A stretch of 21,872 nt of DNA, taken from a virus. The notes beneath the pieces are model-generated. The model worked only from the letters and a program-made list of their open reading frames with translations, had not been told where the DNA came from and ran no database searches. The stretch lies in IMG/VR virus record IMGVR_UViG_3300005664_000114, positions 1 through 21,872 of that record; one strand, given 5' to 3'. Position numbers and translations under genes: made by a program. Shown one piece after another: positions 5,182 to 21,872 of the stretch; position 1 is the first letter of the stretch; every line of letters starts with the position of its first letter.

Positions 5182-6357
5182 ATGGAACTAAATAAAGAAC
5201 AATCAGAATTTTTTGAATTAGCCAAATCAGGTGCTAATATATATCTTTCAGGTAAAGCCGGAACAGGAAAATCTTTCGTGATAAGGAAAATTATAGAGTA
5301 CTTTCAAGAGATTAGCGCAACTTTTGTAGCTGTTGCACCAACCGGAATAGCAGCAAACAACATAGGAGGGGCAACGATACACTCAACTTTCTTGATTAAA
5401 CCTTTTGGGGTTTCGTCTTTTGAAAATTGTACAAGATGTAACAGTAAAAAAAGAGAGATGTTTAAGTCTATCGAAACAATAATAATAGATGAAGTGTCAA
5501 TGCTTAGGCCGGATACTTTAGATGCTATACATTGGACTCTACAAAAAAACGGAGTAAAAGGAGGATTAACTTCTAAGCAAGTTATTTTTGTTGGTGATAC
5601 GAAACAGTTACCTATAATTGTTGACGATAATACAAAGTCTGTTATGTACGAAACGTATAAAGGCGAATCGTTTATGGACGCTTTGGTTTATCAGGAGTTG
5701 GGAGTGAAAGAAATTAATCTATCTGAAATACTAAGACAAAACGATCAAGATTTTATTAACGCCTTAAACGTGATAAGAGATGGTGGTAAGTCTGAATATT
5801 TCAGGCAGTTTGTGAGTAATGAATCTATAGGTATAGTTATAGCCCCACATAACGATACGGTAGAACAATACAACGAAGTAGGATTAAGATCTCAAGAAGG
5901 TGAATTGATAGAACTTTTTGCTGAAATTTCAGGTAACGCCAAACCTGATGAGTTTAATTTAGATCCATTAATACGAGTTAAAAATGGATGTAAAATAATG
6001 TATCTTGCAAATAAAAAAAATTCTGGTTTAATAAATGGCACACTCGGAGTATTTGTTGTTGAAGGTGGAATTTATTTTATAGAAACAGAAAATGGCCGTT
6101 TTGTTTTAGAGCAAAAAAGATTCGAAAAAGTAAAATACGAGTGGGATTCTGTGAAAAAAAAGATGGAGTTAATAACTGTAGGATCTATAGTACAGTATCC
6201 TTTCAGATTAGCGTATGCTCTTTCTATACACAAATCTCAAGGTTTAACCTTCGATAAACTAACAATAGATTTAAGAAGGTCGTGTTTTGCAAAAGGGCAG
6301 CTTTATGTTGCGTTATCAAGAGTTAAGTCACCGGAAGGTTTAAGGATAATTTGTTAA
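5182..6357 (+). CDS. PIF1/RecD2-like SF1B DNA helicase
   Basis: 391 residues with the complete SF1B motif set: motif I GKAGTGKS at 24-31, motif Ia VAPTGIAANNIGGATIHS at 51-68, Walker B DEVSML at 103-108, motif III GDTKQLP at 138-144, motif IV LRQ at 184-186, motif V SIHKSQGLTFD at 348-358 and motif VI QLYVALSR at 373-380. PIF1 helicases move 5' to 3' and unwind duplex, fork and G-quadruplex DNA. In a phage this would assist fork progression or recombination alongside the prim-pol helicase (compare T4 Dda). It is near the minimum size for a PIF1 core, with no extra domains. A CxxC at residues 83-86 (CTRC), also found in other PIF1-like phage proteins as far as I recall, is not enough to propose a metal site. 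Confidence 0.92.
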   Translation: MELNKEQSEFFELAKSGANIYLSGKAGTGKSFVIRKIIEYFQEISATFVAVAPTGIAANNIGGATIHSTFLIKPFGVSSFENCTRCNSKKREMFKSIETIIIDEVSMLRPDTLDAIHWTLQKNGVKGGLTSKQVIFVGDTKQLPIIVDDNTKSVMYETYKGESFMDALVYQELGVKEINLSEILRQNDQDFINALNVIRDGGKSEYFRQFVSNESIGIVIAPHNDTVEQYNEVGLRSQEGELIELFAEISGNAKPDEFNLDPLIRVKNGCKIMYLANKKNSGLINGTLGVFVVEGGIYFIETENGRFVLEQKRFEKVKYEWDSVKKKMELITVGSIVQYPFRLAYALSIHKSQGLTFDKLTIDLRRSCFAKGQLYVALSRVKSPEGLRIIC

Positions 6358-6378
6358 TAATCAATAATAGTAAATTTG
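6350..6378 (+). promoter_or_regulatory. Bacteroidota-type promoter candidate
   Basis: TTTG at 6350-6353 and TAAATTTG at 6371-6378, 17 bp apart, match the Bacteroidota -33/-7 elements, the -7 box perfectly (TAnnTTTG). The pair overlaps the end of the helicase gene and lies 22 bases before the ATG at 6401. The region is AT-rich, so a chance match is possible. Confidence 0.45.
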
Positions 6379-6400
6379 TTAATAAACTTAAAATAGAATC

Positions 6401-6577
6401 ATGCAATTAGAACTTTTTAAAAACGAAAGTACGCAAAAGAACATCAAATTTGAAATAGGTTTTCACCGATCAGTAGCTGTAGAGTTTCGGTATAACGGAT
6501 ATAGAGTAAGCGAAAGTCATTTTAATAAACTAAAATCATCAGAAGGAGGAAGAGTTTTACTTTATAAAATATTCTAA
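6401..6577 (+). CDS. Unknown 58-residue protein
   Basis: An uninterrupted frame from ATG 6401 to TAA 6575-6577 fills the gap between the helicase and the next gene. The product begins MQLELFKNEST, continues with beta-strand-like segments (KFEIGFHRSVAVEFRYNGYRVS) and ends in a basic helix and strand (FNKLKSSEGGRVLLYKIF). It looks like a small one-domain beta/alpha fold. No family recognised. A TAnnTTTG promoter candidate lies just upstream. Same strand, tight spacing (9 bases to the next ATG) and plausible composition support a real gene. Confidence 0.55.
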   Translation: MQLELFKNESTQKNIKFEIGFHRSVAVEFRYNGYRVSESHFNKLKSSEGGRVLLYKIF

Positions 6578-6936: not shown

Positions 6937-7464
6937 ATGGCAACCGAAAGACATAAACTAACAGAGGTGATGGTAGCTGGTAAAGATCCAGCTAGAGTTT
7001 TCGCTCAAACTGCAAAGTTTGATATAGAGTTATTTCAGGATATCCTGAAGGATTTAATGACTGGCCAGTATGGCAGCTTAAAAAGAATATGCGAAAGAAA
7101 AGATATCCACGTAACTACATTCTATAATTGGATTCATGTTGATCCGGATTTGATGGAGGCGTATAAGGTTGCTAGAAAATTTCAGGCGCACATCCTTGTG
7201 GATGACGCAATGGAAGATGCTAATGAAGAGATAGACGGCAGAAGTACAGCCCACGCCATGATGGCTAAACTTAAAGTTGATACCAAAATGAAGGTAGCCG
7301 GAATGTTCAATCGTGAATGGTACGGTAACAAGACTGAAGAGATTAGTACTGTAGCCGTTAAACATGAGATGACGGAGGACCAGTTCATTAAAATACGTCA
7401 GGCTATGCTTGAAAAAAAGAAGGCAGACAATACAGGTATTGAGGATGCTAAAATTGTAGAATAA
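6937..7464 (+). CDS. terS: Terminase small subunit
   Basis: 175 residues. A helix-turn-helix is visible at about 45-67 (YGSLKRICERKDIHVTTFYNWI), followed by the helical segment DPDLMEAYKVARKFQAHILVDDAMEDA typical of small terminase subunits, then a C-terminal helix. It would bind the packaging site of the phage DNA and deliver it to the large subunit. Its stop overlaps the ATG of the large terminase by one base (TAATG), the usual gene pair. It is the first gene after a hairpin and a TAnnTTTG promoter candidate, so it probably opens the late operon. Confidence 0.85.
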   Translation: MATERHKLTEVMVAGKDPARVFAQTAKFDIELFQDILKDLMTGQYGSLKRICERKDIHVTTFYNWIHVDPDLMEAYKVARKFQAHILVDDAMEDANEEIDGRSTAHAMMAKLKVDTKMKVAGMFNREWYGNKTEEISTVAVKHEMTEDQFIKIRQAMLEKKKADNTGIEDAKIVE

Positions 7465-9260
7465 TGCCCCTAACCGTAAACAAAGATGGAATTTTAGTAA
7501 CAGATTCAGGTAAGTTTAAAATCATACCTGGATCTGAGTGGGCATTGCTTAAAGATGTTATTCACGACGAAGATAGTCCAGATAGTCCAGAGTTTGACGT
7601 TTGGGTTGAAAACGACGTGATAGATCTCTATAGGCAAAACTCGTGCATCTTTGTTAACGATGCATTTATAGAACTTTGGGATAAAACCACCGGTATAATG
7701 TTCTTAGCCGGTGGATATGGTAGTTCTAAAACTACATATGTAATCACAAGGTTACTTGTTAAGTGTATCGAAAATAAACAATTTAAGTGTTTTTATGGCC
7801 GTCAGAAAAAAACAGAGGCAAGAGAACTTCATGATAATATCGTCAGGGAAATAATAAGAAACGGATGGGAAGACGACTTTGATTTTTCAATGAAAGATAC
7901 CGGAACTACCGGTATAACATACATTCCTAACGGAAACTGTTTTAAACTTTTTGGTTGCGATGACGAAGATTCTTTGAAGGGTATAGATAACCCTACCGAT
8001 ATATTTATTGACGAAATTAATCAGCTTACCTTCACTGCGTTTGGTAGGCTTGTTTCTCGATTAAGAACACCAGGTGTTGATTTGCAACTTGTTGGCTGTT
8101 TTAATAATTGTGACGTTTACGAGGACCATTGGATATATAAATACATATATTCCGGTGAAGATTCTAAAGATGCTAACGAGGTTCGTGTACAAAAGGCGTT
8201 AAAGAAAAAGAAGATAGTAAAACATCATTCGATTTACACAGACAATAAGTTTGTAAATCCTGATAACTATAGGGCTGCACTGGAGATTAATGCTGGTGGT
8301 GATCTTGTAAAAATAGGTCAATACATAAATGGTGATTGGGGTGTTAAGTTGTCTAAGCAGCCATATTACAAGCAGTTCAAGGCACTAACTCACGTTTCTG
8401 AGGATATATATTACGATCCAAATTTACCTTTACATATATCATTTGACAAAAATAAGCAGCCGTATTTCCCTTGTTTGATTGCTCAATTAAACGGTGGCGA
8501 TATAAATCTAATTGACGAAATAGCCGCTACGAATCCAAACAATACAACTGATTGGATATGTGCCGAGTTTGCAAGAAGATACGAAAATCACAAATCTGGA
8601 CTTTACATATATGGTGATGCAACATCTGCTATAGGTGATGTTACTCATGAAAAGGGTGAAAATATGTACACGATAATTGCTTCTAATCTAAAGCAGTTCC
8701 ATCCTGAGATACGTGTAGATAATAAAAATCCAAATAATAAAGACAGAGGTAACTTTATTAATCTTGTTTTTAAATCGAATTACGGTGGCCTTGACGTTAA
8801 GGTACACCCTGATTGTGTTCACATGATTTCTGACTTTACCAATTGCGAAGAGGCCCCTGATGGTAAAGGTAAGGATAAGAAAACATCAATGGTTAATGGC
8901 GTAAAGGGAGTTCAAAGATATGGCCACTTCGGTGATGCATTTGATTATCTAATATGTTCAGCGCACTCTGATGTTTACGAAAAATGGCGTGCTGGAGATA
9001 TTACTTATGATACAGTTTCAGGTGGCAGAACTATCAGGAATGGAATTTCGGCAGCAATGAAAGAAGTTGTTAAGGAGATTGCGCCTAAGCCTACACTAAG
9101 TAAGAGGTTAATAATAGATCAGTACGGGATAAGAGAGGTTGATGAAAAAATAAAAAGAGGTAAAATAATAAAAGATAGGTTCGGGATAAGAGAGGTTGAG
9201 GATGATTATGAAGCAGATGAAATTGTTTATGTTAGAGTATCTAGGAATAGAATGAATTAG
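7464..9260 (+). CDS. terL: Terminase large subunit (packaging ATPase/nuclease)
   Basis: 598 residues. The ATPase domain has Walker A GGYGSSKT at 83-90 and Walker B DIFIDE at 179-184. The RNase H-like nuclease domain carries candidate metal-binding aspartates at 328 (ISFDKN), 385 (YIYGDAT) and 491/494 (HFGDAFDYLI). The protein powers DNA translocation through the portal and cuts concatemers. It overlaps the small subunit by one base. The C-terminus (548-580) carries an internal duplication: IDQYGIREVD and KDRFGIREVE, encoded by an 18-nt exact repeat. The Walker A form with a second Ser before Lys fits phage terminases. Confidence 0.95.
   Translation: MPLTVNKDGILVTDSGKFKIIPGSEWALLKDVIHDEDSPDSPEFDVWVENDVIDLYRQNSCIFVNDAFIELWDKTTGIMFLAGGYGSSKTTYVITRLLVKCIENKQFKCFYGRQKKTEARELHDNIVREIIRNGWEDDFDFSMKDTGTTGITYIPNGNCFKLFGCDDEDSLKGIDNPTDIFIDEINQLTFTAFGRLVSRLRTPGVDLQLVGCFNNCDVYEDHWIYKYIYSGEDSKDANEVRVQKALKKKKIVKHHSIYTDNKFVNPDNYRAALEINAGGDLVKIGQYINGDWGVKLSKQPYYKQFKALTHVSEDIYYDPNLPLHISFDKNKQPYFPCLIAQLNGGDINLIDEIAATNPNNTTDWICAEFARRYENHKSGLYIYGDATSAIGDVTHEKGENMYTIIASNLKQFHPEIRVDNKNPNNKDRGNFINLVFKSNYGGLDVKVHPDCVHMISDFTNCEEAPDGKGKDKKTSMVNGVKGVQRYGHFGDAFDYLICSAHSDVYEKWRAGDITYDTVSGGRTIRNGISAAMKEVVKEIAPKPTLSKRLIIDQYGIREVDEKIKRGKIIKDRFGIREVEDDYEADEIVYVRVSRNRMN
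9125..9142 (+). repeat. In-frame repeat in terL 3' end, copy 1
   Basis: CGGGATAAGAGAGGTTGA is repeated exactly at 9182-9199, 57 bases (19 codons) on. The wider unit (9111-9145 against 9168-9202) is similar, giving two copies of a (D)(Q/R)(Y/F)GIREV(D/E) peptide at the terminase C-terminus. Confidence 0.8.
9182..9199 (+). repeat. In-frame repeat in terL 3' end, copy 2
   Basis: Second exact copy of the 18-nt unit at 9125-9142. The reading frame is kept, so it adds a duplicated GIREV peptide and does not disrupt the gene. Confidence 0.8.
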
Positions 9261-9320: not shown

Positions 9321-10358
9321 ATGGTTACTCGGCCTACGTTCGTCCCTTACCTACGTTTACAGGACTACTTAACGACTATACAAACAGGGCAACTTTCACA
9401 GCAGATCCTCGATCCACTAAGGGCCGGAGGTATGCAGTTGATTGATGCAGAGTCGTGGGCGATAGGTAAAGTTGTGGAACACATCGAGCAACAGTATGAT
9501 GTATATTTCGAGATTACTGAAACTAAACCATACGATTTTACAAAAAAATACTACGCAGGATCAAGAGTTACTTTAGATTTTCCAGCATGGATACCAGGAA
9601 CTGGCGGAAGCGAAGGAGATGTAATTTATCTTATTGGTAATTGTGTTATATACGAAAAGGTAGCTTATATATGTATCTACGAAAATTCAGATTCAACATT
9701 CAAGCCATACAACTGGCAAAGAATGGGGATGCAGTATGATATATATTATATAGATTTCCCTTATCCTATATTTAGACAGCAGCCACAACAGCAAAAAGGA
9801 TCTTATCGTCAAGGCGTTTACTCTAATGGTTCAGCAAAGATACCTAAGAGTAAGGTTTGGTGGGATAATAAAACTTACGAGTGTCTCGTATCTACAGCCG
9901 TTTATGGCGACCAGTACAATATCCAGTTTTCTCAATTTGACGATATACCAAAACCAAATGTCTTTCCAAACGATTTACAATCAGGCAGTCAATACTGGAA
10001 AGATAACGGTGAATATTCTTTTGTAGGACAATACCCAAATCAATATACTGGAGATCAGCAAAACCTAAGTGAAGGTATGCCTGCCGATTATGATCCTAGT
10101 AAACCTGTTTGGATTCTTGGTGATAATAGAAATCCAATTATAAAAGAAATACTTGTTTCTTTATCATTGTGGTTGCTTCATTCAAGAATATCACCTACTA
10201 ACATCCCTGAACTTAGAGAGCGAAATAAAAATTCAGCTATAGAGAATCTAAGAGCCTATAAAAAGGGAACTTTAAATCTAAGCATGGAGCCATTGCAGCC
10301 GGAACAAGGATCTGATATACAATGGGGATCTAAACCAAAATACTCAAACAGATACTAA
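9321..10358 (+). CDS. Mu gp36-like (DUF1320) head-tail connector with inserted carbohydrate-binding-like modules
   Basis: 345 residues. The ends look like the two halves of a DUF1320 connector: residues 10-64 (LRLQDYLTTI... LIDAESWAIGKVVEHIEQQYDVYF) and 271-322 (NPIIKEILVSLSLWLLHSR... IENLRAYKKGTLNL). DUF1320 proteins are normally about 130-150 residues, and here about 200 extra residues lie between. The insert contains at least one CBM5/12-like unit at 74-134 (YYAGSRV, then VIYEKVAYICIYENSDSTFKP, then W) and a more divergent one at 160-227 (GSYRQGVYS, KVWWDNKTYECLVS, SQYWKDN). It probably sits at the neck, joining portal to tail, with surface-exposed modules. It lies 60 bases after terL. Confidence 0.65.
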   Translation: MVTRPTFVPYLRLQDYLTTIQTGQLSQQILDPLRAGGMQLIDAESWAIGKVVEHIEQQYDVYFEITETKPYDFTKKYYAGSRVTLDFPAWIPGTGGSEGDVIYLIGNCVIYEKVAYICIYENSDSTFKPYNWQRMGMQYDIYYIDFPYPIFRQQPQQQKGSYRQGVYSNGSAKIPKSKVWWDNKTYECLVSTAVYGDQYNIQFSQFDDIPKPNVFPNDLQSGSQYWKDNGEYSFVGQYPNQYTGDQQNLSEGMPADYDPSKPVWILGDNRNPIIKEILVSLSLWLLHSRISPTNIPELRERNKNSAIENLRAYKKGTLNLSMEPLQPEQGSDIQWGSKPKYSNRY

Positions 10359-10359
10359 A

Positions 10360-10674
10360 ATGACTATAATAGATCTTTTATGTTACGTTTTGATATTCTT
10401 AATTTTTTGCCATTACTCTACTAAGATATTTGAGTGGTGGTCAGTTAGGAATAAAAAAGAAACAAATCTGGCCGAATTTATGGCTGACCTTTATAAACTT
10501 CAGGATAAGTGGAGCAGAAAAGGCGAGTTTCATTTCTGTAAGGCGATCGAGTTGATAAAAAACGCAGCCGCCCCTGACGAGCAAGAGGCAGAGCAGCCAA
10601 CTGATGAAGGTAGAAGGATGGTTCGTGCCATGAAGGAACAAATTGCAGAAGAGATTATACAAGACTATAAATAA
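10360..10674 (+). CDS. Unknown 104-residue protein with N-terminal membrane helix
   Basis: A hydrophobic N-terminal segment at about 3-18 (IIDLLCYVLIFLIFCHY) is followed by a charged helical body (FEWWSVRNKKETNLAEFMADLYKLQDKW) and an acidic, Glu/Gln-rich C-terminal third. No signal-peptidase site is obvious, so it is more likely membrane-anchored than secreted. No family recognised. Its place between connector and portal, one base after the connector stop and overlapping the portal ATG by one base (TAATG), ties it to late expression. It could be an assembly factor at the membrane, but that is a guess. Confidence 0.55.
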   Translation: MTIIDLLCYVLIFLIFCHYSTKIFEWWSVRNKKETNLAEFMADLYKLQDKWSRKGEFHFCKAIELIKNAAAPDEQEAEQPTDEGRRMVRAMKEQIAEEIIQDYK

Positions 10675-12176
10675 TGAACAAACTTTCTTTATCTTCTTTA
10701 AGCAGAAATATAGCAACTCCAAGCTACGGTTTAAATCCTGCTGGATTGTATAGGAGAGATGCGTCGTATAATCATATAAGTGATTACATTACTCCTGCTC
10801 AGTTTGAAAGGTGGGCTCATGATGTTTCATCGTGGAGGGCTGCGATAAGAGAAGCTGAATGGGCTTATTACCCACAAAGGGTAAAGATGATGAGGATGTA
10901 CATCGATACTGTAGAAAACATCGAAGTAAAAGCTGTTCTCGATAGACTGTACGAAATTTGCCTACAAAGAGATATTTCAATATATCAAATGAAGGGTGGC
11001 GAGATAATAGAATCTAAAGACTTGTCACAACAACTAGAATCTCAAAGATGGTTTCGTGACTATAGAAAAATGGTCTTAGATGCTATGCTTTGGGGTTTTA
11101 CTCTTATTGAACTTGGTGATATTGTTGAAGATTCTTTTCCTAATATAACATTTACTAGAAGGCAAAATTTAAGGCCGGATGGTAACGGCGAAGGTGCTGT
11201 ATTGACATCAATGATTTACGGAATAGACGGATTGCGTGTTGAAAGTGATCCGTTAATTGCTATGTGTAATCATTGGATAAATACTCCTTCTAATATAGGC
11301 GTTAGTAGATGTGGATACGGATTGCTTTATAATATAGCTTACAATGAAATCCATTTAAGACATATCATAGAGTGGAATGTTGACTACATCGAAATGTATG
11401 GCCAGCCAACAAGAGTTGGTAAAACTACAAAAACCGGTGCAGCTAGAAAAAAATTCGAGCAATTTCTAAGGAACGCAGGTCAGGATGCTTACATTGTTTT
11501 GGACAATCAAGATAGTGTTGAATTTGTAGATGGTAAAGGTGCAGGTACTGCTTGGAAATGTTACGAAAATCTTGAAAATAGATTAAAGGCTGGTATATCA
11601 AAAGTAGTACTTGGTCACGAAGATGCAATATCAGCAACAGCCGGTAAGTTAGGTGGTCAGCAAGCTGCATCAAAAGATGGTTTCCACGAAAGTCTTATCG
11701 AACAAGCTATTGGTAGCAAGCAGGTTTATTACGGAAACTTCGAGTGTTCTAAGATAAATGAAGTTTTTGCACCTAAGATGAGGGCTCTTGGCAAATATGT
11801 TGGCTCTAAAAAGATAGCAAACTTTATACCTGACGGATACTTTTATGGATTAAAGAACGACAGGGAAGAAGATTATGTATCTAGAAGATTGAATTCTAAA
11901 AGAGTTACAATATCAACTTATGTTAAAAGCATGAATGATGCTGGTTGGGATATAGATAAAGATCAACTTTCAGCTTTGTTTGGAATGAAACTTACCGCAT
12001 CTGTTCCTGAAAGAAAACTTACAGAGTTCAAGACTACGGAGGCTACTATACATAAACCAGATGATGACGGAACACCATTTGATGGTTATAAGAAACTCGT
12101 TAAGCCTACAGAAGAACCTGCTAAAGATAAGAAAATAAAAAATTCACTTGCTAAAGATATTTTAAATGGAATTTAA
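10674..12176 (+). CDS. Portal protein, DUF935 / Mu gp29-like
   Basis: 500 residues. Features of DUF935 portals are present: the helical stretch around KMMRMYIDTVENIEVKAVLDRLYEI at 71-95, the region FRDYRKMVLDAMLWGFTLIELGD near 122-144, and the characteristic IIEWNVDYIEMYGQPTRVG near 226-245. The portal dodecamer forms the packaging channel at the head vertex and docks the connector. The C-terminal 40 residues are charged and low in complexity (KLVKPTEEPAKDKKIK). The start ATG overlaps the previous stop and the end overlaps the ferritin gene by 11 bases, so portal and ferritin are translationally linked. Confidence 0.88.
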   Translation: MNKLSLSSLSRNIATPSYGLNPAGLYRRDASYNHISDYITPAQFERWAHDVSSWRAAIREAEWAYYPQRVKMMRMYIDTVENIEVKAVLDRLYEICLQRDISIYQMKGGEIIESKDLSQQLESQRWFRDYRKMVLDAMLWGFTLIELGDIVEDSFPNITFTRRQNLRPDGNGEGAVLTSMIYGIDGLRVESDPLIAMCNHWINTPSNIGVSRCGYGLLYNIAYNEIHLRHIIEWNVDYIEMYGQPTRVGKTTKTGAARKKFEQFLRNAGQDAYIVLDNQDSVEFVDGKGAGTAWKCYENLENRLKAGISKVVLGHEDAISATAGKLGGQQAASKDGFHESLIEQAIGSKQVYYGNFECSKINEVFAPKMRALGKYVGSKKIANFIPDGYFYGLKNDREEDYVSRRLNSKRVTISTYVKSMNDAGWDIDKDQLSALFGMKLTASVPERKLTEFKTTEATIHKPDDDGTPFDGYKKLVKPTEEPAKDKKIKNSLAKDILNGI

Positions 12177-12645
12177 ACCATCAGAAGAAATAGTAAAAAT
12201 AATTTTAGATAGACTTAGAAACGAACTTCAAGCCAGTTTCCACTATCAGTACTTATCTAACTGGTGCGATTCTGCAGGATTTGATGGTTTTGCCAAATTC
12301 TATAAGCAAGAATCTGATCACGAAATTTCACATGCTAGAGTACTTCAGTCTTATCTTAATGGATGGGGTGTTCAGTATAATATACCTGCTATATCAAATA
12401 CTACTTCTGTTTCATCCTTGATGGACTCTATCGAACAGTCAAGGGAAATTGAACAATCTCTATATGTCGCATACAATAACGACTGTTTATTCTTAGTAAA
12501 TAAGGATTTTTCAGCATTAAGTTTATTTGTAAAAATGGTTGATATACAAAAAGAAGCTGTCTTTGAGTATAATACTCTTTTAGAAAAATGCAGAAACAGC
12601 AGAGATCTTTTCCTTTTCGATAAAGAAGTTTTCGACAATGAGTAA
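12166..12645 (+). CDS. Ferritin (ferroxidase-site-containing ferritin-like protein)
   Basis: 159 residues, about the length of bacterial FtnA (165). By recalled alignment to E. coli FtnA the ferroxidase ligands are kept: Glu20 (for E17), Glu53 and His56 (the ExxH of HEISHA, for E50/H53), Glu96 (for E94) and Gln128 (for Q127), plus Tyr27. The FtnA site-C residue E130 appears to be Ala131 here. The C-terminal LFLFDKEVF resembles the LYFIDKEL of FtnA, so similarity runs to the end. Ferritins oxidise Fe(II) and store it as mineral in 24-mer cages; Dps-type proteins form 12-mers. The gene overlaps the portal stop by 11 bases and the gpG-like start by 8, in the slot where Mu-like phages usually carry MuF. 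Role in the phage is unknown: iron storage, oxidative protection or a virion part. Confidence 0.85.
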   Translation: MEFKPSEEIVKIILDRLRNELQASFHYQYLSNWCDSAGFDGFAKFYKQESDHEISHARVLQSYLNGWGVQYNIPAISNTTSVSSLMDSIEQSREIEQSLYVAYNNDCLFLVNKDFSALSLFVKMVDIQKEAVFEYNTLLEKCRNSRDLFLFDKEVFDNE

Positions 12646-13051
12646 ATTAGGCTTTGATAAATTAATAAAAAATCTCCCCGTAATAAAGAGGAGATTTCTT
12701 ATTAATGGAATAAAGCTGGCCCAAAAGGAAATGAAAAAAAACTTTGATGGCGAGGTTAATTCCGAATCAGGCGAAATGTGGGAAGATGTAAAAAGACCAG
12801 TACCTCCTAAGATTCTAATAGAAACGGGATCTATGAAGTCTGAAACGCAAAACAATCAACCTGCAATTTCAGAAAACAAAGCCGTACTAACGATAGATCC
12901 AATGGACTCCAGAGGTAGAAGTTATGCAGCTTATCACCAGGAACATCCATCTAAAGGTAGAAATATTCAAAGGGAATTTGTAACTCAGTCAATGTCGTTA
13001 GATAGGGAACAGTTGCAGGAACTTAAAGATCAAGTAGAAAAGTTTTTATAA
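12638..13051 (+). CDS. Phage virion morphogenesis protein, Mu gpG-like
   Basis: 137 residues with the hallmarks of the phage virion morphogenesis (tail completion) family: a basic N-terminal helix, then W at 48 followed by VKRPVPPKILIETGSM at 51-66 (the family's PpkiLvdTG-type motif), then SYAAYHQEHPSKGRNIQREF at 95-114 and a C-terminal helix. Members act at the head-tail joining stage. The gene overlaps the ferritin end by 8 bases, so it belongs to the same translational run. The family's usual length is about 150 residues. Confidence 0.75.
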   Translation: MSKLGFDKLIKNLPVIKRRFLINGIKLAQKEMKKNFDGEVNSESGEMWEDVKRPVPPKILIETGSMKSETQNNQPAISENKAVLTIDPMDSRGRSYAAYHQEHPSKGRNIQREFVTQSMSLDREQLQELKDQVEKFL

Positions 13052-13068
13052 AAAATAAAATTAAACAC

Positions 13069-13611
13069 ATGAACAATTTTAAAGTAGGAGATGTTTTATA
13101 TTTGAAATCAGACAACTCAAGATGTGTAGTCTGCTGCGAGAATCCTTTCAAAGTAATGTTTGAAAAGTCTACTCTTTGCGACTGGATACCTAAAGAGTGT
13201 TTTTCTACAGAAAAGTTCAATGAAAAAATATCTTACGAGATTGAACTTAAAGATTTAGTATCGGAAGGACTTTCTAATATTTTAAATAAAGTTAACAGAG
13301 ATGTACTTATTCAAAGTATAAAAGAATCTGAAACTGAGGATAACTTTTCGTTTTCAGAAAAGCCAAATGGTGATATGTCTGTAACTATAAAAACTCAGGA
13401 GTCGGTAGAGAAACTTTCAGATATTACTGCTACTCTTTCAGAAGTAAAATCAAACCAAAAAACAATTATCGTTGTAAGAGTGGATAATAATGTTACTAAT
13501 GAAAGACTAAATGAAATCTCTGAAATGGCAAAATTTATATCAAATTCAGACGTTATTGTTTTCAGAGATGCACCTGATTTTGAATTACAATTTATGGACA
13601 TATATCTATAA
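13069..13611 (+). CDS. Unknown 180-residue protein with YodC-like N-terminus
   Basis: The N-terminus (FKVGDVLYLKSDNSRCVV, residues 4-21) resembles the opening of small YodC/DUF2158-type beta-barrel proteins (VGDvVyLKSGgp-mtV), with Cys at 19, 22 and 23 and a CDWIPKECF segment near 37-45. The rest is acidic alpha/beta (ELKDLVSEGLSNILNKVNRDVL, then KTIIVVRVDNNVTNERLNEISEMAKFI). The last 50 residues, with a strand, a helix, and then DVIVFRDAP, may be a small separate domain. No firm family. It lies between gpG-like and terminator-like genes, and its stop overlaps the next ATG by one base, so a neck or assembly role is possible. Confidence 0.5.
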   Translation: MNNFKVGDVLYLKSDNSRCVVCCENPFKVMFEKSTLCDWIPKECFSTEKFNEKISYEIELKDLVSEGLSNILNKVNRDVLIQSIKESETEDNFSFSEKPNGDMSVTIKTQESVEKLSDITATLSEVKSNQKTIIVVRVDNNVTNERLNEISEMAKFISNSDVIVFRDAPDFELQFMDIYL

Positions 13612-14420
13612 TGGCCTCACGAACAGCTAAAATATACACCGACCTATTAGATATTGTAAAGTCAATACCTAACATCTATGACCAAAACAGGCCATCGGAT
13701 TATCCTTTCTTTGTTTATTGCAATGTTTGGGATGACCAGATAGACGAATCTATACTTTCTGAAAATTACGCATTTAACTATCCTGCTTGTTTCATAGAGG
13801 TTGATTTAGGTGAAGGTGTGCAGTGGATGGCTGGAATGTCGTCTTATCCTGATACTATAATTTCGTTCCATATAGTTGGTTATTTACTAGACGGAGGAAA
13901 TGATAATATGGAGCAAAACTTGCCGATTTTTGAAATAAAAGATTTGATTAAATCAAAGATTTTAGGAAAGAATCCGTCACACTGCTCTTCTTTACAGGTA
14001 TGTGCAGATAAACAAGACTTTAAGCATAAAGGAGTTTATAAGTATGTTTTATCTTTCAGAACAAACTTTATAGACAAAGCTGGTTCTGATTACGATCCTC
14101 TAGGTAGAGATCAGAAGTTTGGATACATAACAGACGGTACAATGAATTTAAATTCATTTAAGTTATGGGAGGCTGGTAATGATTATACATCAGGACTTAA
14201 TGCCATTTCTTACAGAGGTTCAATTTACCTTTGCGTTATCTCTAATTCTGACGACACTTTTGATGAAGGCAAATGGGAGTTAATACCTATTTGGCAACCT
14301 AAAAATTCATATATCGTAAATGACTTAGCAGCGTTTGGATCTTCAATTTACGAATGCTCTACTGATAATTCAGACGAAGTTTTCAATCCAGCTAATTGGA
14401 ATAAAATTTATCCATTATAA
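13611..14420 (+). CDS. Tail-terminator-like protein with two C-terminal CBM5/12-like modules
   Basis: 269 residues in two parts. Residues 1-155 resemble tail-terminator/tail-completion proteins: an N-terminal helix (AKIYTDLLDIVKSIPNI), strands around PACFIEVDLG and TIISFHIVGYLL, the helix EQNLPIFEIKDLIKSKIL, and a final KYVLSFRTNFID strand. Residues 185-266 contain two tandem modules of the form W-x-x-G/K-x-x-Y-x(n)-Y/F-x-G-x-x-Y-x-C-x(6-8)-F-x(3-4)-W: LWEAGNDYTSG to EGKWEL, and IWQPKNSYIVN to NPANWNKI. These look like chitin-binding type-3 (CBM5/12) folds, which bind glycans. The modules would decorate the neck or tail tip. Family assignment of the N-terminal half is by shape and position only. 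Confidence 0.6.
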   Translation: MASRTAKIYTDLLDIVKSIPNIYDQNRPSDYPFFVYCNVWDDQIDESILSENYAFNYPACFIEVDLGEGVQWMAGMSSYPDTIISFHIVGYLLDGGNDNMEQNLPIFEIKDLIKSKILGKNPSHCSSLQVCADKQDFKHKGVYKYVLSFRTNFIDKAGSDYDPLGRDQKFGYITDGTMNLNSFKLWEAGNDYTSGLNAISYRGSIYLCVISNSDDTFDEGKWELIPIWQPKNSYIVNDLAAFGSSIYECSTDNSDEVFNPANWNKIYPL

Positions 14421-14421
14421 T

Positions 14422-15285
14422 ATGGCAAGGACTGTATCACAAATAAAAGAAAACTTAAAGGATGCTTTAGTGGCAGCAGCCGCTACTGTTGGTCTAGTTA
14501 TAGATCCTGCTATATGGAGTAAGTCTGATTATAAGGATTTGTTCTGTGAAATAATTGCATCTCAGCAAGCTATAGAAGAGCAGTTGTATGATGATTTCGT
14601 TCAGACTAGCGAGTTGTTAATATCTAAGGCTGCTCCGCAAACTTCTGTTTGGTTAAGAGATAGGATGATTAACTTGTTCGAGTATGATTCAACTAACGCT
14701 CCTATTGTTCGTTTGAAGATACCTGAATTGTATCCTTATTACGAATCTCCTGTTCCTGCTTATAGAGTTGTTAAATATTGTTCTGTAACATCAGGCGTGG
14801 CCGGAACTGTAGATATAAAAATAGCTGGCGATAATGGAGTTCCGTATAAGTTGTCTGCGCCTGTTGTTTTTGCTGCACAATCATTTATTAACATAATAAC
14901 ACAGGATGGTATAAATTACAACGTAGCCTCTTACGATCCTGATTATTTGTATTGTGGGGCAACGATATACTACAATGGAATTTATTCTGCTGTAATATCT
15001 ACTAACGTAAAACTTGCAATTTCTAATTATTTAAAATCTATACCTTTTAATGGTCAAGTTTCGTTGGACGATTTGATTTTGATAATAAAGGCTGTTCAAG
15101 GAGTTACTAGGGTTATCTTAAATAATGTTTACACTCGTAGGAATACAGTTCCTTTTGGATATGGCACTACTATGGTTGCTGGAAACACTTGGATAAACGA
15201 TATATATCAGACTTATGCTGGTTATATTTTTCCTGACGTTTCACCTAATGATATGGACTCTTCTTTGACTTTTATTTCTGTATAA
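14422..15285 (+). CDS. Baseplate J-like protein
   Basis: 287 residues from ATG 14422, one base after the upstream stop. A longer frame beginning at 14335 lies inside the upstream gene and is not used. The N-terminal region (LFCEIIASQQAIEEQLYDDF, then PQTSVWLRDRMINLFEYD) and the C-terminal segment (FNGQVSLDDLILIIKAVQGVTRVILNNVY) match the layout of Baseplate_J (P2 gpJ, Mu gp47), where a helical arm is followed by a beta domain and a final INxAVxxVxGV-type stretch. Six or more copies form the baseplate wedges of contractile tails. Its length is close to P2 gpJ (about 300) and shorter than Mu gp47. It indicates that the phage is a myovirus. Confidence 0.75.
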   Translation: MARTVSQIKENLKDALVAAAATVGLVIDPAIWSKSDYKDLFCEIIASQQAIEEQLYDDFVQTSELLISKAAPQTSVWLRDRMINLFEYDSTNAPIVRLKIPELYPYYESPVPAYRVVKYCSVTSGVAGTVDIKIAGDNGVPYKLSAPVVFAAQSFINIITQDGINYNVASYDPDYLYCGATIYYNGIYSAVISTNVKLAISNYLKSIPFNGQVSLDDLILIIKAVQGVTRVILNNVYTRRNTVPFGYGTTMVAGNTWINDIYQTYAGYIFPDVSPNDMDSSLTFISV

Positions 15286-18340: not shown

Positions 18341-19357
18341 ATGCTTCTGATACTTGACGATTCATTTAGCGGGCAATATAGCCCTTACTTAATCAAGCGG
18401 GCTATGTTCCAAATGGATACTCTTCAAAAGGGTTTAGTTTGGTTGAAGTCTGATATAACAAAAATTTATCACATCGACAGGATGGACTTGCAAAACCCAT
18501 TGAGTGTTTATCAGGATACTCCAGTTGACTCTGGTTTGAATCCTATAACAATTGATGGAAGGATACTGATCCCTCAGCCAGTTCAGGCGGTAAAGTATGT
18601 TAATCCTCAGGATTTAACGACAAGTCAACTTGGCCTACTTTTGGCTCAGGCTATCCAATCAAGGATTATTCCAAACGAAATAGCCGCTCAAATATTCAGT
18701 TTGATACTGTCAAGGGCTGGCGAGCAGTTTGAGTTGATGGCATGGCAGGGTTCTGTTGCGTATCGTGGCCATTATGTAGAAACCGATGCTCTTTATCAAT
18801 TACAGTTTTTTGATGGCTACATCACTAAATGCGTAAGTGATCCTCTTGTTAAAAAAGTTTCGGGTGCAGTTGCCTTAACAGCGAGCAATACAACTCAGGC
18901 ACTTGACGCATTGATGGATTTGATTCTTGGGGTGAATCATGGAGCGTTACTATCCGACAAAGATAGTTTTGAGGATATGAAGTTCATGATGGGCCCTAAA
19001 GCGTATCTTTACTATCTTACTCAGCTTGGTGCAGGTTTTGACTTTAAGGGTGCAACTTTGGCGCAAGCGATACCGGATCGTTGGAAAGGCTACAGGATAG
19101 AAAGATGCTCAGGTATGCCTGACAACACTATCATGTTCGCCAGGGCATCTGACAATATGGAGAAATCAAATCTTTGGATGGGTTGCAACTCAGAAAAAGA
19201 TTGGGAATTGAGGATTGACCGTATCCAGCCGCTTTCTGATACTTATGGTATAGTAGGCAAGTGGAAATGGGATGTAAACTATGGTTACTCTGACGAGATA
19301 GCCATCTACACAACCTTAACACCAGAATCATTTATACCTGCAGAATCAGGTGAATAA
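18341..19357 (+). CDS. Major capsid protein
   Basis: 338 residues. Position directly after the protease-scaffold, a typical capsid length and a composition of mixed alpha/beta with few Cys support an HK97-fold capsid protein. The N-terminus (YSPYLIKRAMFQMDTLQKGLVWLKSDITKIYHIDRMD) could be the N-arm. The LTTSQLGLLLAQAIQSRIIPNEIAAQIFSLILSRAGEQFELMAW stretch near 95-138 resembles the spine helix. The segment DNTIMFARASDNMEKSNLWMG at about 273-293 followed by the late strand region resembles those of other capsid proteins. The gene has its own hairpin before and after, and an A-rich leader (GATAAAAAACTTTCAAA-ATG) without Shine-Dalgarno, suited to high expression in Bacteroidota. No domain signature is decisive, so the call rests on context and shape. 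Confidence 0.8.
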   Translation: MLLILDDSFSGQYSPYLIKRAMFQMDTLQKGLVWLKSDITKIYHIDRMDLQNPLSVYQDTPVDSGLNPITIDGRILIPQPVQAVKYVNPQDLTTSQLGLLLAQAIQSRIIPNEIAAQIFSLILSRAGEQFELMAWQGSVAYRGHYVETDALYQLQFFDGYITKCVSDPLVKKVSGAVALTASNTTQALDALMDLILGVNHGALLSDKDSFEDMKFMMGPKAYLYYLTQLGAGFDFKGATLAQAIPDRWKGYRIERCSGMPDNTIMFARASDNMEKSNLWMGCNSEKDWELRIDRIQPLSDTYGIVGKWKWDVNYGYSDEIAIYTTLTPESFIPAESGE

Positions 19358-20544: not shown

Positions 20545-21872
20545 ATGTCATTTCCTAATTTAACTCTTGTTCAGAAGCAAGGCAATAGCGGCCGTCCGAT
20601 ACAGGGACAGGACCATCTAAGTGGAATGTTGTTCTACGGTGATGCTCCATCTGTTTCAGGAAAATGGGCTACATATGCCGGATCGCCATCAATAAAGGCG
20701 CAGCAGTTGTTTTCTACAGCAGATGCTACTTCTGCCGGAATAGTTCCATATTCTGACAACACAGCCGCTACATCTACGCATACATTAGTTAAAGGATCGA
20801 CAGGCGACACGATAACTATCTATGCAGCTATACCAGTAGTTGTTTCTGATACTTATCCAACTGGTTTTAAGACAGTAACTCTTTGCACTTACGCTCAAGT
20901 TGCTGGCGACTCTACCGATACTTTATTGGCAGTTTCTGTTAAAAATGCAATTAACGCATTAACTTACTCGACAGGATTCTCTGCAACTTCTGCTCTTGGT
21001 GTTGTTACAATTGTTGCTCCAAAGTCTGCCGGTATATCACTTAATACAGGAACTGTTTACACAAAGACTATCGTTGGAACAATGACTGATACTATCGTTC
21101 AGAATGTTGTTGCCGGAACAGCTTCAAATCACGCTCTTTGGTATTATCAAATATCTGAATTTTTCAGAATATTCCCGAAGGGCTCGAATATCTGGGTTGG
21201 TATTTGCGCAGTTGCTGACAGGTCATCTTTTAACGAAGTTGTAACATTGCAAAGAGTTGCAGCTAAATCTACTTTGCGCCAAATCGGCATAAGTGATATT
21301 TCTACAACTACCGGACTTGCTGCAAATATATCTGGAAGTATATCTACATTGCAAACAGCTGTAGAAACTTGTTTTCAGGATGCGCCTTTTGAAGCTGTTT
21401 ATTCTCCGAATATTGCTGCTGTTTCTGATTTATCAACATTGCCTGATCAGAATCTAAACACAGCGCCGAGAATACAAACTGTTCTTAGTCAGGATGGCGG
21501 AAATGATGGAGCGCAACTATTCATAAGAAATGGTATATCTACCGGCTCTATGGGTGTTAAACTTGCTACTATTGCAATATCCAGGGTTTCAGCATCTGAC
21601 GCACAGGCTATAACTGCTTTTTCAGTTTCATCTGGAACTGAAAATAACATACCGGCCTTTGCAAACGGCCAGTTACTATCAGCAGTTTCTGATTCTTTAC
21701 AGTTGCAGTTGAACGACAGGAATTACACATTCTTTAGGTCTTGGGGTGATGTGGTAGTTGGAACATTCTGGAATGATAACAGAACATGCGTGGACAATTC
21801 ATCTGACTACGCTTATGTTAACGACAACAGGACTTTTCAAAAAGTCCAGAGGATATGTAGAAAAACTTATGT
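20545..21872 (+). CDS. Tail sheath protein, DUF2586-like (partial, runs off window end)
   Basis: The frame opens at ATG 20545 and continues 442 codons to the window edge without a stop, so the 3' end is missing. N-terminal segment: SFPNLTLVQKQGNSGRP then DHLSGMLFYGDAPS. Central features are YQISEFFRIFPKGSNIWVGI, VLSQDGGNDGAQLF and the late stretch NGQLLSAV then LQLQLNDRNYTFFRSWGDVVVGTFWND, then SSDYAYVNDNRTFQKVQRICRKTY. This order (EFF..PkG..iWv, a QDGgn-type strand, then a SSDY.Yi..NRt..Kv.R segment near the C-terminus) is that of the DUF2586 tail sheath family. The sheath polymerises around the tail tube and contracts on infection. An insertion of about 120 residues near 60-195 with a Thr/Ser/Val-rich beta domain may be a surface domain. 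Confidence 0.8.
   Translation, partial: MSFPNLTLVQKQGNSGRPIQGQDHLSGMLFYGDAPSVSGKWATYAGSPSIKAQQLFSTADATSAGIVPYSDNTAATSTHTLVKGSTGDTITIYAAIPVVVSDTYPTGFKTVTLCTYAQVAGDSTDTLLAVSVKNAINALTYSTGFSATSALGVVTIVAPKSAGISLNTGTVYTKTIVGTMTDTIVQNVVAGTASNHALWYYQISEFFRIFPKGSNIWVGICAVADRSSFNEVVTLQRVAAKSTLRQIGISDISTTTGLAANISGSISTLQTAVETCFQDAPFEAVYSPNIAAVSDLSTLPDQNLNTAPRIQTVLSQDGGNDGAQLFIRNGISTGSMGVKLATIAISRVSASDAQAITAFSVSSGTENNIPAFANGQLLSAVSDSLQLQLNDRNYTFFRSWGDVVVGTFWNDNRTCVDNSSDYAYVNDNRTFQKVQRICRKTY

What the first reader, a model, noticed from the sequence alone, without database searches (positions are those of the whole stretch)
12166..12645. A complete ferritin embedded in a phage head-assembly operon
Seen: a 159-residue protein with Glu20, Tyr27, Glu53-x-x-His56, Glu96 and Gln128 in the FtnA ferroxidase pattern, and a C-terminus like that of FtnA. 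It overlaps the portal gene by 11 bases and the gpG-like gene by 8, so it is translated in step with virion proteins. Known: ferritins build iron-storing cages. Mu-like phages usually carry a MuF-type protein at this place, and none is seen here. Inference: the phage may carry a ferritin that is co-expressed with, or built into, the particle. It might protect packaged or replicating DNA from Fenton damage, hold iron for the tail or baseplate, or contribute a cage-like scaffold. I am not aware of a described ferritin with this neighbourhood.
Basis: partly seen in the sequence, partly recalled or inferred. Interest (0 to 1): 0.82.

Follow-up and report, generated by a model that had tools for sequence, protein, structure and literature searches.

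The report
Phage-specific ferritin beside portal gene
This virus of bacteria carries, wedged between two genes for building its head, a gene for an iron-oxidising ferritin that belongs to a previously undescribed family found in dozens of uncultivated phages, which suggests that some phages make, and perhaps carry, their own iron-handling protein.

Summary
Window 12166-12645 encodes a 159-aa ferritin (PF00210, E=2e-14). It overlaps the Mu-type portal gene by 11 bases and a gpG-like gene by 8. With relatives as alignment it models as a four-helix bundle plus short fifth helix (pLDDT 93) matching solved ferritins at TM about 0.9.

It is not a host gene caught in passing. It belongs to a ferritin family found in about 65 uncultivated phage contigs of several unrelated lineages, in one phage-like contig among 84,980 prokaryotic species genomes, and by tblastn in no clear phage record of GenBank. 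All ferroxidase ligands are invariant (66/66), while the FtnA third-iron-site glutamates are lost and E49/V132/E134/Y135 are gained. Three diverged relatives carry it in the same operon (terminase, adaptor, portal, MuF, ferritin, gpG). Five other contigs with different portal types carry it just after the portal region; most others have it between giant genes, 14 of 50 with polyvalent-protein or zeta-kinase domains.

Best reading: a catalytic phage ferritin made late with head proteins, likely virion cargo delivered with DNA (inferred), otherwise a late iron/ROS sink. It is accessory: the closest relative lacks both it and MuF. New variant of a known kind.

The parts
12166..12645 (+). phage-family ferritin, 159 aa; ferroxidase ligands E20, E53, H56, E96, Q128 and Y27
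   Evidence: PF00210 E=2e-14; AF2 pLDDT 93; Foldseek TM about 0.9 to solved ferritins; ligands invariant in 66 family members
10674..12176 (+). portal protein, Mu gp29/DUF935 type, overlaps ferritin by 11 bases
   Evidence: PF06074 E=2.8e-30
12638..13051 (+). gpG/PF05069-like virion morphogenesis protein (weak), overlaps ferritin by 8 bases
   Evidence: 33% to L012 7846-8226; aligns with lotta8-1 gp30, PF05069
10360..10674 (+). small protein with a hydrophobic N-terminal stretch, conserved at the same place in L012
   Evidence: 28% over 96 aa, E=1e-8; sequence
9321..10358 (+). head-tail adaptor (Mu gp36-like) with CBM5/12-like stretches
   Evidence: phrog_195; PF07030 weak; sequence
6937..7464 (+). 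terminase small subunit
   Evidence: PF20901 E=7e-16
7464..9260 (+). terminase large subunit
   Evidence: PF04466 E=1e-22
14335..15285 (+). baseplate protein (weak), conserved in relatives
   Evidence: phrog_6 baseplate wedge E=5e-4; 37% to L110
16992..18269 (+). head maturation protease (ClpP-like)
   Evidence: PF00574 E=3e-13, phrog_2976
18341..19357 (+). virion structural protein, by position and homology the major capsid protein
   Evidence: phrog_1623/20525; 37% to L012

Best explanation
The gene encodes a working ferritin of a phage-specific family. Shown: ferritin sequence and predicted fold; complete ferroxidase ligand set, invariant across the family; a tight operon with portal/MuF/head genes here and in relatives. 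Inferred from the operon: it is translated late, in step with head proteins. Inferred from the chemistry of the family: subunits bind and oxidise Fe(II), form a cage, and so hold iron and consume O2/H2O2 near phage DNA. Inferred from position: like MuF proteins and polyvalent proteins, which occupy the same places, it is most likely packaged in or bound to the head near the portal and delivered with the DNA, where it buffers iron and oxidative damage at the start of the next infection.
For: PF00210 in the window and in all 20 relatives tested. AF2 model pLDDT 93, pTM 0.87; best PDB matches are PfFtn, EcFtnA, TmFtn and CjFtn at TM 0.87-0.91. Ligands E20, Y27, E53, H56, E96, Q128 invariant in 66/66. 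Codon-third-position GC 0.256 equals the portal's 0.257, so not an obvious recent import. Same slot in three diverged relatives, L110/L169, L172 and L127. Next to or just after the portal in two other portal families (L010/L158/L159 and L106/L107). In 65/65 members with a visible upstream same-strand gene the gap is -14 to +26 bases. MuF adjacent in 3/50 contigs; zeta-kinase and/or LPD38 domains in the adjacent or next-but-one giant gene in 14/50. Polyvalent and MuF-type proteins are argued to be virion-packaged and injected (PMC5512222; PMC5576092).
Against: No virion proteomics and no iron assay exist. None of 80 portal relatives (L012-L091) carries it in the fetched DNA, so it is accessory and not part of the assembly core. 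A 12-nm 24-mer cage would not pass a portal or tail tube, so delivery would need subunits or partial unfolding. The window's copy is highly diverged (end branch 3.12 in the tree).
Confidence: 0.5

Rival explanations
1. The ferritin works only in the infected producer cell. Made late from the structural operon, it mops up free Fe(II) and peroxide released as host metabolism collapses, so that newly made and packaged phage DNA is not damaged; it is not in the particle.
For: Intact ferroxidase ligands. Phage Dps and Mn-catalase are interpreted as stress protection in gut phages (PMC8008677). Patchy presence fits an accessory gene.
Against: Does not by itself explain why the gene sits so consistently beside portal, MuF or polyvalent-type genes in unrelated phages, although late expression alone could.
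Confidence: 0.37
2. The protein has a structural role in the virion (plug, minor head or connector part) and its iron chemistry is incidental.
For: Location between portal and gpG with overlapping reading frames.
Against: Invariance of all catalytic ligands in 66 proteins implies selection on metal chemistry; the closest relative has portal and gpG adjacent without it (L012).
Confidence: 0.06
3. Iron store for tail or receptor use ('Ferrojan horse'): the ferritin loads iron ions onto tail or baseplate parts for entry by siderophore receptors.
For: A published proposal for Vi01-like phages, where a protein called ferritin by structure matching is encoded near a tail gene and seen by mass spectrometry (PMC10892097).
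Against: Here the neighbours are portal and head genes. The Vi01 study found no dependence on TonB or FeoB.
Confidence: 0.04
4. A sporadic, host-derived insertion without function.
For: Long branch of the window sequence; presence is patchy.
Against: Phage and cellular ferritins split at 100/99 support. The window shares 9 of 15 phage-diagnostic residues and 4 of 22 cell-diagnostic ones. Same slot in three relatives. Intact ligands and native codon composition.
Confidence: 0.03

Closest known systems
Bacterial non-heme ferritin FtnA (EcFtnA 1EUM; also TmFtn 1VLG, PfFtn 2JD6)
   Same: PF00210 fold, short C-terminal fifth helix, ferroxidase ligands E, Y, E-x-x-H, E, Q
   Different: Third-iron-site glutamates (window positions 52, 127, 130, 131) are absent or mostly absent; phage-only E49, V132, E134, Y135; far below the NCBIfam FtnA equivalog cut-off
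Phage Dps and Mn-catalase of Gratiaviridae/Flandersviridae (PMC8008677)
   Same: Ferritin-superfamily iron/ROS proteins carried by phages
   Different: Different families; not reported as a portal-linked FtnA-type protein
MuF (Mu gp30 / SPP1 gp7) and polyvalent proteins
   Same: Same genomic place: directly after the portal, or in giant late genes argued to be packaged and injected
   Different: No sequence relation. The word ferritin does not occur in PMC5512222
Encapsulins with ferritin-like cargo (PMC8346489)
   Same: HK97-fold shell genes beside a ferritin-superfamily protein
   Different: Encapsulin shells are domesticated cellular compartments with targeting peptides; here a complete phage morphogenesis operon. 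No targeting peptide was tested
Vi01-like phage gp217 'ferritin' (PMC10892097)
   Same: Phage protein called ferritin, near a structural gene, detected by mass spectrometry
   Different: Assigned there by structure matching only; tail context. tblastn with window and relative proteins gave no match in such phages

Membership tests
Ferritin superfamily PF00210 | profile score above curated cut-off | tested here: met
   54.1 bits against 24.5
Ferritin superfamily PF00210 | four-helix bundle fold | tested here: met
   AF2 model pLDDT 93 with 18-row alignment; Foldseek TM about 0.9 to solved ferritins. The single-sequence model failed, pLDDT 42
Classical (FtnA-type) ferritin | ferroxidase ligands E17, Y24, E50, H53, E94, Q127 (FtnA numbering, from memory) | tested here: met
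   E20, Y27, E53, H56, E96, Q128 in 66/66 family members (window included) and 19/19 cellular sequences
Classical (FtnA-type) ferritin | third iron site glutamates (FtnA E49, E126, E129, E130, from memory) | tested here: not met
   window H52, I127, E130, A131; cellular sequences have E at all four
Classical (FtnA-type) ferritin | NCBIfam FtnA equivalog PRK10304 cut-off | tested here: not met
   39.6 bits against 178
Classical (FtnA-type) ferritin | 24-mer cage and Fe(II) oxidation | not testable with these tools
   no multimer prediction or assay available
Dps | 12-mer mini-ferritin without C-terminal fifth helix | tested here: not met
   helix 148-156 present; the 50 listed PDB matches are ferritins or bacterioferritins. 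Oligomer not tested
MuF / polyvalent injected cargo | place beside portal or in giant late genes | tested here: met
MuF / polyvalent injected cargo | sequence relation to MuF (PF04233) or LPD domains | tested here: not met
   only PF00210 found in the protein
MuF / polyvalent injected cargo | presence in virion and ejection with DNA | not testable with these tools
   needs proteomics

The most novel reading that the evidence does not exclude
Phages carry ferritin as virion cargo: a dedicated phage ferritin family is packaged beside the portal and injected with the genome to control iron and oxidative chemistry in the new host, a viral counterpart of ferritin-loaded encapsulins.
Probability: 0.4. 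Interest if true: 0.9.

Novelty: new variant of a known kind. Interest (0 to 1): 0.72.

Why it matters
Phage iron proteins are usually treated as stray host genes. Here a ferritin family is nearly confined to phages, keeps its catalytic site strictly, has its own diagnostic residues and sits in tight operons beside portal, MuF or giant late genes in unrelated phages. That makes a direct test possible of whether virions carry iron-oxidising enzymes, relevant to marine iron budgets, to oxidative stress during infection and to the evolutionary link between phage heads and ferritin-loaded encapsulins.

Tried and rejected
Single-sequence pattern scans with the window ferritin or portal found no relatives; alignments were needed. 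GenBank phage hits MT836766, OR845001 and OR850087 and the IMG/VR contig L011 were set aside as probable chromosomal contaminants: L002, L003 and L011 show host-type genes around a cellular-type ferritin; OR850087 (2.7 kb) was not opened. Single-sequence AF2 was useless (pLDDT 42). I considered 'ferritin replaces MuF' and rejected it: L110, L172 and L127 have both, L012 has neither. A clade of the window with its three syntenic relatives was mildly rejected (AU p=0.025); long branches make its exact place unsure. Searches for PF05136, PF12236 and phrog_12082 portals in the giant-gene phages found almost none, and PHROGs/Pfam left most of those giant genes unannotated. Literature searches found no description of this family. 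The record MT838721 (H65, 23% identity, E=6e-3) was fetched but not analysed.

Full report
Observation. Window 12166-12645 is an ATG-started 159-aa ORF. It overlaps the portal gene 10674-12176 (PF06074, E=2.8e-30) by 11 bases and the following gene 12638-13051 by 8. Pfam gives one family, Ferritin PF00210, 54.1 bits, E=2e-14. PDB sequence matches are ferritins or ferritin chimeras, led by Thermotoga maritima (E=7e-11). E20, Y27, E53, H56, E96 and Q128 are present as stated. The surroundings are a Mu-like phage operon: terminase small and large subunits, adaptor, a small protein with a hydrophobic stretch, portal, ferritin, gpG-like, baseplate, ClpP-type protease and capsid protein. The last ORF, 20545-21870, looks to me like a tail sheath (by eye, not tested), so a contractile tail is likely. 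G000 is a 21,872-base IMG/VR record, so no host genome is attached. A Bacteroidota host is inferred from relatives that infect Flavobacterium.

Structure. Alone, the sequence folded badly (pLDDT 42). With an alignment of 17 phage relatives it gave pLDDT 93, pTM 0.87, helices 7-37, 40-65, 85-110, 115-143 and a short 148-156. Foldseek against the PDB ranks P. furiosus, E. coli FtnA, T. maritima and C. jejuni ferritins at the top, TM 0.87-0.91. Against predicted viral proteins the best match is a 'putative bacterial non-heme ferritin' of an uncultured marine phage.

A phage family. One alignment scan with two chromosomal ferritins led to L010, a lambda-like phage with a ferritin right after its PF05136 portal. 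Aligning it with the window protein found 20 viral loci, and the resulting 18-row profile found 70. In one genome for each of 84,980 prokaryotic species only one locus matched: a 6.4-kb contig in a Burkholderiales MAG with the same giant-gene neighbours, hence probably a phage. In 200 genomes of that phylum, all other matches are cellular ferritins scoring at most 112 bits, against 135-271 for the phage members. tblastn with six members finds no clear family member in 50,697 GenBank phage records; the few hits are probable contaminants (L002, L003) or unexamined fecal or short fragments.

Residues. Over 66 distinct full-length phage-type proteins (including the window) and 19 cellular ones, E20, Y27, E53, H56, E96 and Q128 are invariant in both. 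Cellular proteins have glutamate at positions 52, 127, 130 and 131, the third iron site of FtnA (site assignment from memory). Phage proteins have lost 52 and 131 entirely and mostly lost 127 and 130. Phage proteins instead have E49, V132, E134 and Y135 in all 66. Caution: VGEY was one of two search patterns in the last scan, and the first family scan used a pattern that contains E20 and Y27, so invariance at these positions is partly by selection; the window itself was not so selected and still has these residues, and E49, E53, H56, E96 and Q128 lie outside the patterns. The window shares 9 of 15 phage-diagnostic and 4 of 22 cell-diagnostic residues. The tree separates phage from cellular sequences with 100/99 support, but the window has an end branch of 3.12 and its exact place is unsure.

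Neighbourhood. Three phages related to the window in terminase, adaptor and portal (portal about 34% identity) carry the order TerL, adaptor, portal, MuF, ferritin, small gene, gpG: L110/L169, L172 and L127. The closest relative, L012 (portal 43%), has portal overlapping gpG directly, with neither MuF nor ferritin. L013-L015 and the Winoviridae members lotta8-1 and FPSV-S27 have MuF without ferritin. Among 80 portal relatives none has a ferritin in the fetched DNA. The gene is therefore an accessory occupant of a fixed slot, and MuF and ferritin come and go independently. In L010, L158 and L159 it follows a lambda-type portal or a gene of the same cluster; in L106 and L107 it is one small gene after a phrog_12082 portal. 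In most other contigs it lies between two giant genes. Of 50 contigs, 10 have a zeta-kinase domain and 5 an LPD38 polyvalent domain in a giant gene next to it or one gene away, 14 contigs in all. In 65 of 65 members with a visible upstream gene the gap is -14 to +26 bases.

How it likely works. Shown: a real ferritin by sequence and predicted fold, intact catalytic ligands under strict conservation, and a tight operon with structural or giant late-type genes across phage lineages. Inferred: late co-expression, Fe(II) oxidation, cage assembly. The place after the portal is the classical place of MuF proteins, which bind the portal in SPP1 (PMC5576092), and polyvalent proteins are argued to be packaged and injected (PMC5512222). 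This makes virion carriage and delivery the reading I favour, at about even odds, over a late iron/ROS sink confined to the producing cell. The cage size problem (12 nm against a narrow portal) is a real objection to delivery of assembled particles.

Known and new. Phage Dps and Mn-catalase (PMC8008677) and a ferritin-called tail-region protein in Vi01-like phages (PMC10892097) are known, and PHROGs holds a related unknown-function family, phrog_16594. I found no description of a portal-linked, phage-restricted ferritin family with these residues; only open-access papers were searchable. I file it as a ferritin, not as FtnA, because the equivalog score and the third-site feature were tested and not met.

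Noticed in passing
window 9321-10358 and 13611-14420: CBM5/12-like tryptophan/tyrosine repeats appear inside the head-tail adaptor (345 aa against 139 aa in L006/L007) and in tandem at the end of 13611-14420 (Pfam CBM_5_12 just below cut-off); similar stretches are visible in relatives L012, L013, L015 and L110.
   Followed up: partly
window 10360-10674: Small protein with a hydrophobic N-terminal stretch between adaptor and portal, conserved in L012 at 6152-6442; role unknown.
   Followed up: no
L119 3689-9973 and relatives: Giant 1,000-3,000-aa genes flank the ferritin in most phage-family contigs; most have no recognisable domain, some hold zeta kinase or LPD38.
   Followed up: partly
GenBank OR845001.1 (L003) and MT836766.1 (L002): Records labelled as phages that look like bacterial chromosome: a Staphylococcus contig with housekeeping genes around a ferritin, and a gut bacterial contig with a two-component system.
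   Followed up: partly
BFVD hits A0A6J7XDU5, A0A6J7WPK9, A0A6J7WIS1: Weak structural matches between the ferritin model and 'prohead protease' proteins of uncultured Caudovirales; a ferritin-like domain fused to head proteases might exist.
   Followed up: no
L176 / CAIVGK010000053.1: A phage-like contig carrying this ferritin is binned into a Burkholderiales MAG, a possible host clue for that branch.
   Followed up: no
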